From Acidobacteriota bacterium (GTDB lineage Bacteria > Acidobacteriota > Terriglobia > Bryobacterales > Bryobacteraceae), in assembly GCA_016201205.1 (NCBI GenBank), contig JACQDF010000176.1, positions 1-58,456 on the forward strand: DNA of 58,456 nt. The letters are read 5' to 3'. A program made the translations under genes and the position numbers. A model generated the notes under the pieces. It was not told the DNA's origin. It worked only from the letters and a program-made list of their open reading frames with translations, and ran no database searches. Position 1 is the stretch's first letter; every line of letters starts with the position of its first letter. Below, one piece after another: positions 5,014 through 42,378 of the stretch.

Positions 5014-7098
5014 TCAGTAGCGCAACAGCCGCTCAGCCTCGCGGGCTACGTCCTCGGCTTGCGGCAGGATCTCGTCTTCGAGCGATGGATGGTACGCCAC
5101 CCAGGTGTCCAGGGCGGCGACCCGGCCAACGGGCGCATCCAGGCGCTCGAACAATTCGCCGGCAATGCGAGCGGCGATCTCGGCGCCATAGCCCCAGCTC
5201 AGCACGTCCTCGTGCGCGATCAGCACCCGGCTGGTGCGGCGGACGGATTCCGCAATCGCCGTCCAGTCGTAGGGCGACAGCGACCGCAGATCGAGGATCT
5301 CGATGCTCCACTCCGGATTGCGCCGCTCGAGTTGTGTAGCCGCCAGCAGCGACTTCTGCACCAGTGCACCGTACGTCACGATCGTCAGATGCTGGCCCGG
5401 CTTGACGATGCGCGCGCGGCCGAAGGGGATCGTAAAGTCCGGGCCGGGGTGCGGGGACCGGTTGTAGGGCTCACGGTAGAGCTTCTTGTGCTCGAGGAAG
5501 AGCACGGGATCATCCGAGCGAACCGCCGTGCGCAACAGACCGCAGGCGTCCAGCGCATTGGAGGGCATCACTACGCGCAGGCCCGGAATGTGCGTGAACG
5601 CGACTTCGCCGGACTGGCTGTGGTAGATGGCGCCGCCGCCCAAATAGCCGCCGATGGCGACGCGAATCACGACCGGGCAGGAGAATGCATTATTCGAGCG
5701 CCAGCGCAGCGTCGCCAGCTCGTCGCGAATCTGCATCATGGCGGGCCAGATGTAGTCGAAGAACTGGATCTCGGCGACGGGCTTGAAGCCGCGTGTGGCC
5801 AGGCCGATGGCCCGCCCCACGATCGATGCCTCGGCCAGCGGCGTGTTGAAGCAGCGCTCCGGGCCGAATTCGCGCTGCAAGCCTTGGGTGGCTTTGAATA
5901 CGCCGCCTTTGCCCTTGACATGCGGCAGATTCTCGAGACGGCTGCAATCGGCCACATCCTCGCCGAACACCAGAATCCTCGAGTCCCGGCGCATCTCCTC
6001 GGCCAGCGTGCGATTGATGGCATCGACCATCGTTCTCGGCTCGCCTGCGAGAACCGGATCCGCGGCGAATTCCTCCGAGGTGGGGTCGATCCGGTCTGAA
6101 TAGAGAAAGTGCAACGCCGAGCCGCTCGCCGGAGACTCGGCTTTCAACGCGGCTTCGGTAGCCGCCTGCACTTCCATCTCGACTTCGTGGCCGATCAACT
6201 GTAGAGTGTGCCGGTCCAGCACGCCCTCCCGCATCAACTGCTCGGGGAAGCGGAACACCGGGTCGCGGAGCGATTCCTGGTCGCGTTCTTCCTTGGTCTT
6301 GTAGAGCCGCTCATCGTCGGAGAGCGAGTGTGAGTATGGACGAATCAAGTGGGCGTGAACCAGCGCCGGCCCTTTCCGGGTGCGGCACCACAGCAGCGCC
6401 TCTTTGATCGCATCGTAGGAGGAGAAGAAATCTGTGCCATCGACTTCGCGCACCAGCAGATCCGGAAACCCGCCGGCCAGACGTGAGATCCTGCCACCGG
6501 CCGTTTGCACCTCGACGGGCACGGAAATCGCATAGCCGTTGTCTTCCACCAGATACAGCAGCGGCAGCTTCTGAAGACAGGCCAGGTTGAGCGACTCCCA
6601 GAATTCACCCTCGCTCGTGCTGCCATCGCCGCAGCAAACCAGGGTCACTTCGTCCGGCGTGGTTTTGAGGCGCAGGGATGCTTCCGCGCAGCCGGCCGCC
6701 TGAACAAACTGGGTTCCGGTGGGCGAAGAGCTGGAAACAATGTTCAACTCCCGGCTGCCCCAATGCGACGGCATCTGGCGTCCCCCCGAAGCCGGGTCGG
6801 CGGCGGCGCCAACGGCCTCGAGCAGCATGTCCAAAGGGGTCACGCCCAACGCCAGGCAAAGCGCCCGGTCGCGGTAGTACGGGTAAAGCCAATCCACGCC
6901 CGGCCGAAGCAGAAAGCCGGCGGCCACCTGGACGGCTTCGTGGCCGGCGCCGCTGATCTGGAAGTAGATGCGGTTCTGCCGCTTCAGCAGAACCTCGCGG
7001 TCATCCAAGCGTCGCGACGTCAGCATGAGCCGGTACGCTCGCTTCCATTCATCAGCCGACAGTTCCGGGTAGGCAGAAAGGGGAGCTCGAATGGCCAT
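5014..7098 (-). CDS. Fused E1 alpha-beta subunit of a 2-oxoacid dehydrogenase complex
   Basis: A thiamine-diphosphate enzyme that decarboxylates a 2-oxoacid (branched-chain oxoacid, pyruvate or acetoin type) and passes the acyl group to an E2 lipoyl protein. Both E1 subunits lie in one chain of about 694 aa. Residues about 20-340 are the alpha part with the TPP motif [18 protein letters not shown] and a downstream EDNGYAIS. Residues about 370-545 are the transketolase-type pyrimidine-binding part ([11 protein letters not shown]). The last about 130 are the transketolase C-terminal domain. The ATG at 7098 is used; an in-frame GTG at 7116 with GGAGG almost touching it is the alternative. No E2 or E3 gene is nearby, so the complex partners must be encoded elsewhere. 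Substrate is undetermined. Confidence 0.9.
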
Positions 7099-7161
7099 CG
7101 TCGTGGTCAGACGCACGCCTCCAGTGTAAACAACGGGTCCGTGGTCTGCGATGGCGCCTTC

Positions 7162-7264
7162 TGACGAGTACGCGCAAAACGGACCGCGCCCGCGGCAGGG
7201 ACACTCCGGTGTTCCTCAACGGCTTGGCGCCGCGGGGCGCGGCCTTTGCGCTTTTGACGAGTAC
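7162..7264. mobile_element. Palindromic MITE-like element, copy 1, with 10-bp target duplication
   Basis: An 83-bp core (7172-7254) runs from GCGCAAAACGG to CCTTTGCGCTTT. It is an imperfect inverted repeat: the outer arms GCGCAAA and TTTGCGC and the GC-rich inner arms pair, and the centre contains GGGACACTCCGGTGTTCC, itself a hairpin. The core is flanked on both sides by TGACGAGTAC (7162-7171 and 7255-7264), an exact 10-bp direct repeat of the kind left by transposition. It encodes no transposase. The second full copy is at 30019-30101. It lies between the divergent E1 and truB genes. Confidence 0.8.
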
Positions 7265-7335
7265 TTGGTTCCAACGTGCACGGAATCCGCGAATGACCAG
7301 ACTGAAGCAGCGCCGATGCTACAGTGGACACTTGC

Positions 7336-8217
7336 ATGGACGGAGTGATTGTAGTCGACAAGCCGGAAGGGTGGACGTCGCACGACGCGGTCAACAAGAT
7401 GCGGCGGCTGGCCGGCACCAGGAGAGTCGGGCACCTGGGGACCCTGGACCCCATGGCAACCGGCGTCTTGCCCCTGGTGGCGGGACGCGCCACCCGGCTG
7501 GCGCAGTTTTACATGCGCAACGACAAACGTTACGATGCGCTGATCCGCTTCGGGTATGCCACCGACACCTATGACCGCGATGGAACGGCCACCACGCCGC
7601 GGACCGATCCTGTTCTGGATACCGCCACCATCGAGCCATTGCTCGACGAACACCGCGGCCTGATCGTGCAGACGCCGCCGGCGATCTCAGCCAAGAAGGT
7701 CGGCGGGCAGCCCGCCTACAAGCTGGCGCGTAAGCGCGTCGCGGTCGAGCTGAAGCCGGTGCAAGTCACGGTGTATTCACTCGAATTGCTGGAATGTGCG
7801 GGCAGTGCGATCCGCATCCGGGTGCATTGCTCAGCGGGGACGTACCTGCGCAGCATGGCGCACGATTTGGGGCAAAAAGTCGGCTGCGGCGCGTTTCTGG
7901 AAGCGCTGCGTCGCACGGCCAGCGGTGACTTCACGATTGAGAACGCACGCACGCTTTCGGAATTGGAGGAGATGGCGGGACAAGGACGCCTGAAGGAGGC
8001 GCTGGTGCCCGCCGCCCGTCTGCTTCCGCAGTTTCCCGCTGAAACGGTGGATGCGTTCACCGTGAGCCAGATCCGGCAAGGCCGTGACTTCCGGGTATCA
8101 CCCTTCCGCGTCCAGCGTGGCGCGAAATACGTGAAAGCAATGAGTCCGGAGGGAGACCTGGTGGCGATCGGCGAAGTCAAGATGCCGAATCTGTATCACC
8201 CGATCTTGGTGTTGTGA
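7336..8217 (+). CDS. truB: tRNA pseudouridine(55) synthase TruB
   Basis: Converts uridine 55 in the T-loop of most tRNAs to pseudouridine. The 293-aa protein begins MDGVIVVDKPEGWTSHD and has the catalytic aspartate in GHLGTLDPMATGVL (about residue 40), plus the RVHCSAGTYLRSMAHDLG segment typical of the family. The C-terminal extension resembles the TruB C-terminal domain. The ATG at 7336 matches the conserved family start; an in-frame GTG at 7324 exists and no strong Shine-Dalgarno site is visible. Its TGA at 8215-8217 directly abuts the reverse-strand stop of glmU, forming TGATCA. A palindromic repeat lies 70 bp upstream. Confidence 0.97.
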   Translation: MDGVIVVDKPEGWTSHDAVNKMRRLAGTRRVGHLGTLDPMATGVLPLVAGRATRLAQFYMRNDKRYDALIRFGYATDTYDRDGTATTPRTDPVLDTATIEPLLDEHRGLIVQTPPAISAKKVGGQPAYKLARKRVAVELKPVQVTVYSLELLECAGSAIRIRVHCSAGTYLRSMAHDLGQKVGCGAFLEALRRTASGDFTIENARTLSELEEMAGQGRLKEALVPAARLLPQFPAETVDAFTVSQIRQGRDFRVSPFRVQRGAKYVKAMSPEGDLVAIGEVKMPNLYHPILVL

Positions 8218-29672: not shown

Positions 29673-30284
29673 GCGCCTCGCACCAGGGGAGCTTTCGCTG
29701 AGCCGGTTGTCAGAAGTAGGCTGTTTCTCTCCCTTCCACTTCCATCGGATCTTCCAGGCAGTGACCGGCGAGACGCTGAACAGACATGTGCGGCGCGGGC
29801 GGCTCGAAAGAGCGGCCCTGCTCATGAAGACATCCCCCCGCAACCGGATTACCGATGTTGCGATCGAGGCAGGCTTCGCCGGAACCGCGGAATTCTCCCG
29901 CGCTTTCAGGAACCACTTTGACAGGGCGCCCAGCTCATGGGACCGCCGCAGCCCGCTCGAAAAAAGCAAGATTTGCAAAGCGCCGGAGATGCTTTCCCTT
30001 TACCCCTCTAAGGAACACGCGCAAAACGGACCGCGCCCGCGGCAGGAACACTCCGGTGTTCCTCAACGGCTTGGCGCCGCGGGGCGCGGCCTTTGCGCTT
30101 TAGAGGAACTGGAAAGCTGGAAGGCCGCCGCCAATGTGCGGGTCCGGGTCAGCCGGTTCAGCGCGTTCCGCTATGTCTACATTCGCATCTTCGAGCCCTA
30201 CGGCAATACCCGGCTGGTTGACGCCTATCACGCGCTCACCGCATGGCTGGCGGACAGGCAGACCGACATCCGGGACCGGCGATC
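29671..30284 (+). pseudogene. AraC-family regulator with GyrI-like domain, N-truncated and carrying an in-frame repeat insertion
   Basis: Residues from LSRLSEVGCFSPFHFHRIFQ through RITDVAIEAGFAGTAEFSRA form the double HTH of AraC/XylS regulators; the first helix of the usual N-terminus is missing. At 30019-30101 a palindromic element is inserted, but the frame stays open across it (residues [20 protein letters not shown] and on) and then resumes with NVRVRVSRFSAFRYVYIRIF, the start of a GyrI-like effector-binding domain. The domain breaks off near DRQTDIR (about 30284), where a VOC fragment in another frame begins. The antisense intradiol remnant overlaps the 5' end. Confidence 0.7.
30009..30111. 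mobile_element. Palindromic MITE-like element, copy 2, inside the AraC/GyrI gene
   Basis: An 83-bp core (30019-30101) almost identical to copy 1 at 7172-7254, with the same ends and internal GGAACACTCCGGTGTTCC hairpin. Flanks contain AGGAAC at the same offset on each side (30011-30016 and 30104-30109), an imperfect target duplication. Core plus 10-bp duplication is 93 bp, so the host reading frame is preserved. Confidence 0.78.
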
Positions 30285-42337: not shown

Positions 42338-42351
42338 GTTCTGAGGAACTC

Positions 42352-42378
42352 GCGCACAACGGACCGCGCCCGCGGCAG
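42352..42378. mobile_element. Half copy of the palindromic MITE-like element
   Basis: GCGCACAACGG followed by ACCGCGCCCGCGGCAG matches the left arm of the 83-bp element (one mismatch); the right arm is absent. Its left flank TGAGGAACTC resembles the flanks of copy 2. It ends 19 bp before the ATG of the next Gfo/Idh gene. Confidence 0.7.

What the first reader, a model, noticed from the sequence alone, without database searches (positions are those of the whole stretch)
7162..7264. Non-autonomous palindromic element with exact 10-bp target duplication
The 83-bp core at 7172-7254 and its near-identical copy at 30019-30101 have nested inverted repeats and no coding capacity for a transposase. 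Copy 1 is flanked by TGACGAGTAC on both sides, direct evidence of insertion. This looks like a MITE whose mobilising transposase makes about 10-bp duplications.
Basis: seen in the sequence. Interest (0 to 1): 0.75.

Follow-up and report, generated by a model that had tools for sequence, protein, structure and literature searches.

The report
Small mobile hairpin in soil Acidobacteria
A 93-base stretch of DNA that folds into a hairpin and carries no gene has spread to dozens of places in a soil bacterium's genome, often duplicating a few bases of its target; it is a new family of a known sort of tiny mobile DNA, and what enzyme moves it is unknown.

Summary
Both 83-bp cores are present, and copy 1 has the exact 10-bp direct repeat (14 bp with one mismatch). 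The window's genome holds at least 49 copies. Relatives carry 72-81% identical families; 113 of 120 named stretches are titled as Bryobacterales or other Acidobacteria. The unit is [TRAGGAACWC foot]+[80-nt hairpin GCGC...GCGC], inserted at TTYTRAG-like sites, period 93 bp.

Mobility is shown. One G003 locus has CTTCGAAG on both sides of the element; the orthologous site in G010 has it once (G009 a one-base variant, once). Another copy interrupts a thioredoxin-like gene that reads through without it. Flank duplication exceeds chance (23 of 109 isolated copies at 7/8 or better, 12.9 expected, 0/5000 shuffles).

The '10-bp duplication' is not general: reconstructed duplications run from about 2 to 8 bp; copy 1 and L033 look like 14-15 bp outliers. 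The right end is exact, the left junction varies. The base stem covaries; bulges AC and A on one arm are invariant in 46 of 46 aligned copies. No longer element with these ends, adjacent RAYT, or phage/plasmid carrier was found in what was searched. A classic fixed-duplication MITE is only partly supported; the mobiliser is unknown. Closest known: YPAL and REP hairpins.

The parts
7158..7171 (+). copy 1: left 14 bp CTTCTGACGAGTAC (target-like; most copies have CTTYTRAGGAACWC here)
7172..7251 (+). copy 1: bulged hairpin GCGC...GCGC, 80 nt
7251..7264 (+). copy 1: right copy of the duplicated flank CTTTTGACGAGTAC (first C shared with the hairpin)
30005..30018 (+). copy 2: left foot CCTCTAAGGAACAC
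30019..30098 (+). copy 2: bulged hairpin, inside an AraC-type ORF that stays in frame (93 bp = 31 codons)
30098..30109 (+). copy 2: right flank CTTTAGAGGAAC, imperfect repeat of the left foot
42339..42378 (+). copy 3, truncated: foot TTCTGAGGAACTC and the left arm only, between two GFO/IDH-type oxidoreductase genes

Best explanation
It is a non-autonomous mobile element of about 86-90 bp: a 5' foot (TRAGGAACWC) followed by one long bulged hairpin that ends flush with GCGC. Shown: it inserts at sites like TTYTRAG, its right end is exact, and target bases are duplicated over a short, variable length in a part of the copies, giving a 93-bp period. Because each copy rebuilds its own target at its left foot, new copies can land beside old ones and form tandem arrays (inferred from the arrays). 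Inferred: an enzyme encoded elsewhere recognises the folded single strand (RNA or DNA) by its foot and invariant bulges and joins the 3' end to the target first, which would explain the exact right end and ragged left end. The enzyme is not identified. Among concrete mechanisms I rate target-primed copying of an RNA, a HUH-type enzyme and a DDE transposase about equally (0.2-0.25 each), the rest undecided.
For: Copy number and spread: own genome; relatives. Filled versus empty site, L070 against G010 and G009, flanks 88-95% identical; further reconstructed sites L079, L132, L130, L041 inside a thioredoxin-like gene. Flank duplication against shuffles: 23 of 109, 12.9 expected, 0/5000; own genome 9 of 36, 2.8 expected, 3/5000. 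Of 20 copies with an unusual left core, 6 share it exactly with the right. Tandem 93-bp arrays and insertion at the left foot of a second family; one locus has two units in G010 and one in G009 and in L121. Base stem: 99% of cells paired, 11 cells with two-sided change against 2.0 in shuffles, 0/500. Bulges A22 C23 and A26 invariant in 46 of 46.
Against: 86 of 109 isolated copies do not reach 7/8 flank identity, and in the other genomes taken alone the excess is weak (14 of 73 against 10.2, 456/5000). Of 54 copies with an unusual right core only 6 share it with the left. The two-sided changes of the stem fall on only 2 of 11 pairs (92/500 shuffles reach 2). No mobiliser, excision product or transcript was seen. 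Foot/internal GGAAC-GUUCC pairing is not compensated in variant copies (2 of 35). The bulges could be a mere asymmetry of two double-stranded ends. No GC-skew bias (60 of 105, p 0.17), so no support for a lagging-strand DNA route.
Confidence: 0.62

Rival explanations
1. Classic MITE: a deletion derivative of a DDE insertion sequence with about 8-bp duplication at near-palindromic CTTYTRAG, mobilised in trans. Missing duplications are decay or recombination between copies.
For: L070 has an exact 8-bp CTTCGAAG on both sides and once in the empty site of G010; the arms are inverted repeats with two compensated pairs.
Against: Ends are asymmetric (6-9 nt foot on the left only, bulges on one arm). 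Duplication length varies. Of 216 distinct left ends held, 205 have a right end (exact or degenerate, loose pattern) within 125 bases, 7 are cut by the sequence end and 4 escape the pattern; none of the 4 has a further right end within 3.5 kb.
Confidence: 0.25
2. REP-like element acted on by a HUH (Y1) enzyme such as a RAYT, TnpA of IS200, or the 'class 3' TnpAY1 described for Acidobacteria: foot plus bulged hairpin recognised as single-stranded DNA.
For: Architecture foot + bulged hairpin; 34-nt hairpin forms in four assemblies. Full-length TnpA_IS200 (E below 1e-30) in 5 of 7 element-bearing and 0 of 5 element-free genomes of the genus. Class 3 proteins (NHVH, YVVxEQ) in G002 and G004.
Against: IS200-type transposition is recalled (no call) to leave no duplication, whereas duplications are seen. 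None of 28 Y1 loci inspected, a part of those hit, has a copy within the roughly 1-1.5 kb held. Eight Y1 loci scanned show no left-end motif. The own genome gave no full-length TnpA_IS200. Published feet are GTAG/GTGG, CGTC or CnGA, not GGAAC.
Confidence: 0.25
3. SINE-like retroelement: the hairpin RNA is copied into nicked target DNA by a reverse transcriptase acting in trans.
For: Exact right end, ragged left end and variable duplications; stem covariation. RVT_1 present in 6 of 7 element-bearing genomes of the genus.
Against: RVT_1 also in 3 of 5 element-free genomes and not found in G010. No transcript evidence; nothing links any one RT to the element.
Confidence: 0.2
4. Not mobile: a vertically inherited structured RNA or terminator at gene ends.
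For: 36 of 115 copies with TRA in the foot end an ORF of 100 codons or more, against 39 of 227 background sites.
Against: Empty sites, gene interruption, high identity within one genome and divergence between species.
Confidence: 0.03

Closest known systems
YPAL/RU-2 of Yersinia (PMC2229807, passages read)
   Same: small, not A+T-rich, internal inverted repeats, no TA ends, target duplications of variable length (3-26 bp in the review), targets spanning or next to dyad symmetry, mobiliser not named in the passages
   Different: about 168 bp; sequences were not compared here; here 93 bp, a fixed TRAGGAACWC foot, target TTYTRAG, another phylum
REP sequences and RAYT/TnpAREP (PMC3733652, PMC6006769, passages read)
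   Same: 5' foot plus hairpin (bulged in some), many copies, close to or overlapping coding regions, sometimes supplying a stop codon
   Different: REPs are 20-40 bp with GTAG/CGTC feet; here the foot is GGAAC, the full form is 93 bp and target duplications occur; no copy beside the RAYT-type genes inspected
Class 3 TnpAY1 with CnGA-foot hairpins, about 600 copies in Solibacter usitatus (PMC6006769, passages read)
   Same: same phylum, hairpins in high copy
   Different: foot CnGA; no copy of the present element near the class 3 genes inspected
MITEs such as RUP (PMC2229807, passages read)
   Same: non-autonomous, inverted repeats, target duplication
   Different: RUP shares ends with IS630-Spn1 and targets TA; no such IS found here, though no IS census was possible
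Rickettsia palindromic elements (PMC2229807, passages read)
   Same: length divisible by three in the main form; copy 2 lies in frame in an ORF
   Different: no general in-frame insertion seen; the foot often brings TAA/TGA (115 of 141 copies)

Membership tests
MITE (DDE-mobilised) | terminal inverted repeats at both exact ends | tested here: inconclusive
   arms covary but the left end carries a 6-9 nt foot and bulges not present on the right
MITE (DDE-mobilised) | target duplication of fixed length | tested here: not met
   about 2-3, 4, 5 and 7-8 bp in four reconstructed sites; 14-15 bp repeats in L001 and L033
MITE (DDE-mobilised) | autonomous partner with the same ends | tested here: inconclusive
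   no longer element among 216 distinct left ends held; whole-genome IS census not possible
REP/RAYT system | 5' tetranucleotide foot GTAG/GTGG (or CGTC) | tested here: not met
   foot is GGAACWC
REP/RAYT system | copies flank the RAYT gene | tested here: not met
   0 of 28 Y1 loci inspected carry a copy by pattern; not all hits were inspected
REP/RAYT system | foot followed by a bulged hairpin in high copy | tested here: met
IS200/IS605-type derivative | insertion without target duplication (recalled) | tested here: not met
   L070 empty/filled site; excess of shared flanks
YPAL-like small mobile palindrome | variable-length target duplication, no TA ends, internal inverted repeats | tested here: met
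   homology to YPAL itself not tested
known RNA families | match to an Rfam family | tested here: not met
   12 loci, E up to 5: one hit, off the element
Retroelement (SINE-like) | RNA intermediate | not testable with these tools
   needs a marked-element assay

The most novel reading that the evidence does not exclude
A bacterial SINE: a tiny structured RNA without any gene that is copied into TTYTRAG sites by a reverse transcriptase in trans, starting at its exact 3' end and leaving a ragged 5' junction with variable target duplications.
Probability: 0.15. Interest if true: 0.85.

Novelty: new member of a known kind. Interest (0 to 1): 0.42.

Why it matters
Small mobile palindromes are common in bacteria, and the review read in passages (PMC2229807) says that how they move has no experimental support. 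This family has empty sites, tandem growth, a recognisable target, a sister family and close relatives with and without copies at the same site, so the question of what moves such hairpins can be tested directly. It also lies at contig ends and interrupts a gene in soil Acidobacteria.

Tried and rejected
In-frame protein insertion like Rickettsia elements: copy 2 is in frame and the main unit is 31 codons, but other lengths are not enriched for multiples of three (lengths, judged by eye) and the foot often carries TAA/TGA. Dropped.

IS200 as mobiliser: full-length TnpA_IS200 tracks the element in the genus (5 of 7 against 0 of 5), but the loci scanned show no left-end motif. Not supported, not excluded.

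Class 3 TnpAY1 as mobiliser: present in G002, G004 and relatives; no copy beside those inspected.

Reverse transcriptase link: weak.

GGAAC-GUUCC pseudoknot and an HDV-like ribozyme reading (the ribozyme fold is recalled, from no call): 122 of 178 copies contain the complement of their own foot 5-mer, and within family 1 foot position 13 goes with the internal partner (86, 2, 8, 4; p 0.0016, relatedness not corrected), but variant feet are not compensated (2 of 35), and I saw by eye no catalytic core. My first structure string was off by a column and was replaced.

Strand or gene-direction bias: none. Viral contigs, plasmids, phages: no match. Empty site of copy 1 itself: G004 and G006 have the E1-truB junction without the element, but the spacer is too diverged to align base by base. 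L130 had a flanking match in G010 only. An earlier flank test on 78 copies (positions 4-6: 125 of 234 against 108.5, 46/5000; 59 copies without neighbours: 100 of 177 against 83.5, 8/5000) is. Stop-codon enrichment is modest.

Print: searches listed no paper whose title or abstract start describes this element; only open-licence PMC text is searched, and the Solibacter genome paper (PMC3174227) was seen as passages only.

Full report
OBSERVATION. The two 83-bp cores at 7172-7254 and 30019-30101 are there and 99% identical. Copy 1 has TGACGAGTAC on both sides; the direct repeat extends to 14 bp with one mismatch. Copy 2 has only a rough repeat (AGGAAC). A third, truncated copy lies at 42339-42378 between two GFO/IDH-type genes.

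COPIES IN THE GENOME. A search of the window's own genome gave 44 matches, 43 of them copies at 94-100% identity (40 of 124 candidates were scored); a later search listed six further places at 91-96% over core and flanks, so at least 49. The left end GGAACWCGCGCAMA occurs 54 times exactly and 96 times with up to one mismatch; the reversed control pattern gives 11. Several contigs end inside copies, so the true number is probably higher (inference).

WHAT THE UNIT IS. The flanks of 43 copies, printed in register, show that the stretch left of the hairpin is conserved (CTTYTRAGGAACWC) while the right flank keeps only CTTYTRAG-like letters (column counts over 78 copies). In tandem arrays the period is 93 bp (C124, C143, C383; G003:C192). 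So in most copies GAACAC belongs to the element, and copy 1, where the left 14 bp equal the right flank but for one base, is unusual; L033 is the clearest similar case, L043 a partial one. A second family (GCYCGCACAACG...TGTGCGRGC) has the same design, and family 1 sits exactly at the left foot of family 2 in L013, L025, L027, L039, L048 and L054; in G004 and G006 the reverse order also occurs. Seven short forms of 34 nt keep only foot and base stem.

DISTRIBUTION. 21 of 61 genomes searched, own included, have a match at E 0.01 or better, but only the stronger ones are clearly the element: in the genus, G002, G003, G004, G006, G009, G010 and the own genome carry it, and G001, G005, G007, G008 and G011 gave no match. 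Strong hits in other genomes are 72-81% identical to the own-genome consensus. IMG/VR (exact pattern), PLSDB plasmids and INPHARED phages (blastn) gave nothing.

INSERTION. L070 in G003 has CTTCGAAG on both sides of the element; G010 at the orthologous place has CTTCGAAG once and G009 CTTCGAGG once, with flanks 88-95% identical. L130: the empty site in G010 is GGTTCTATCG; the filled site has GGTTCTA before and CTTCTATCG after the element, so the right-hand C is best read as the element's last base and the duplication as TTCTA. L132: duplication about TT/TTT; L079: about TTCT(T)A, with extra bases of unclear origin; both empty sites are diverged and the readings rough. L041 interrupts a gene; with the flanks joined it reads as a 183-codon frame whose 175-aa part matches AhpC-TSA/thioredoxin families across the junction, and the duplication is TTCT. 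So the duplication varies, the right end is exact and the left junction varies.

STATISTICS. Among 212 distinct copies held (52 own; 183 family 1, 29 family 2), 109 have no neighbouring element. 23 of these 109 match at 7 or 8 of 8 flank positions (shift up to 2); 12.9 are expected when right flanks are shuffled, 0 of 5000 shuffles reach 23. Own genome 9 of 36 against 2.8 (3/5000); other genomes 14 of 73 against 10.2 (456/5000). In an earlier, unshifted test on 103 copies, positions 1-8 gave 499 of 824 against 480 (283/20000); of 20 copies with an unusual left core 6 share it with the right, but of 54 with an unusual right core also only 6. The majority show no clear duplication; decay, recombination between copies, or true absence are all possible.

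STRUCTURE. In 46 copies of equal length whose cores are less than 95% identical (chosen from 126), the base stem is paired in 99% of cells, with 11 two-sided cell changes against 2.0 in shuffles (0/500), on 2 of 11 pairs (92/500 shuffles reach 2); with partners slid by 1-3 columns at most 62% of cells pair. The extrahelical A22, C23 and A26 on the left arm are invariant. No Rfam family fits in 12 loci. A pairing of foot GGAAC with an internal GUUCC is possible but not supported by compensation.

SETTING. Copy 1 lies between divergent genes, a fused E1/transketolase-type dehydrogenase (5014-7116, minus) and truB (7324-8217, plus). G004 and G006 have the same two genes with a short spacer and no element; G003, G009, G010 and G011 have them about 0.8 kb apart. 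Copy 2 lies behind the HTH_18 domain of an AraC-type ORF that happens to stay open. Over the loci held 36 of 115 copies with TRA in the foot end an ORF of 100 codons or more, against 39 of 227 background CTTYTRA sites. No GC-skew or gene-direction bias.

MOBILISER. Of 216 distinct left ends in the loci held, 205 have a right end (exact or degenerate, by a loose pattern that can also match by chance) within 125 bases, 7 are cut by the end of the sequence, and 4 escape the pattern; two of these four (L075, L156) show a right end by eye, two (L128, L313) look truncated, and none has a further right end within 3.5 kb. So no longer, gene-bearing version was met, but no IS census was possible. Full-length TnpA_IS200 occurs in G002, G003, G004, G006 and G009 and in none of the five element-free genomes; the own genome and G010 gave only weak or partial Y1 matches. 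Eight Y1 loci scanned lack the left-end motif. Of 28 Y1 loci inspected none has a copy in the stretch held; G002 and G004 hold 'class 3' TnpAY1 (NHVH, YVVxEQ; motifs from PMC6006769). RVT_1 is in 6 of 7 element-bearing and 3 of 5 element-free genomes. The enzyme is therefore unknown. My preference for recognition of a folded single strand rests on the one-sided foot, invariant one-sided bulges, exact 3' end and ragged 5' end; it is inference.

COMPARISON. YPAL of Yersinia shares the variable duplication and absence of TA ends (PMC2229807, passages). REP hairpins share foot plus hairpin (PMC3733652, passages), and class 3 TnpAY1 is tied to CnGA-foot hairpins with about 600 copies in Solibacter usitatus (PMC6006769, passages); feet and neighbours differ here. 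I file it as a new family of small non-autonomous mobile palindromes, not as a member of the REP/RAYT or IS200 systems, and not proven to be a MITE.

Noticed in passing
   Followed up: partly
L013, L025, L027, L039, L048, L054, L089-L091, L094-L098: sister family GCYCGCACAACG...TGTGCGRGC with the same foot and target, head to tail with family 1
   Followed up: partly
   Followed up: partly
L118, L148, L165, L167, L189, L211: seven minimal hairpins of exactly 34 nt (plus foot) in four assemblies; seem to be recurrent internal deletions
   Followed up: no
L344, L345, L346, L348, L349, L352; own genome L064: class 3 TnpAY1-type genes (NHVH, YVVxEQ) in relatives; the one in the own genome is interrupted by an in-frame stop (read by eye)
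   Followed up: partly
G002, G003, G004, G006, G009: full-length TnpA_IS200 is found only in element-bearing genomes of the genus (5 of 7 against 0 of 5)
   Followed up: partly
L167, L196, L207, L212, L216, L222, L224: contigs titled Nevskia soli (isolate BOG_genome_mining.15) carry this acidobacterial repeat; the label may be wrong or the bin mixed
   Followed up: no
L065 2100-2450: another GC-rich palindromic repeat (GCCGGCCAGAAGGCCGGC) near a Y1-type gene in the own genome, perhaps a separate REP-like family
   Followed up: no
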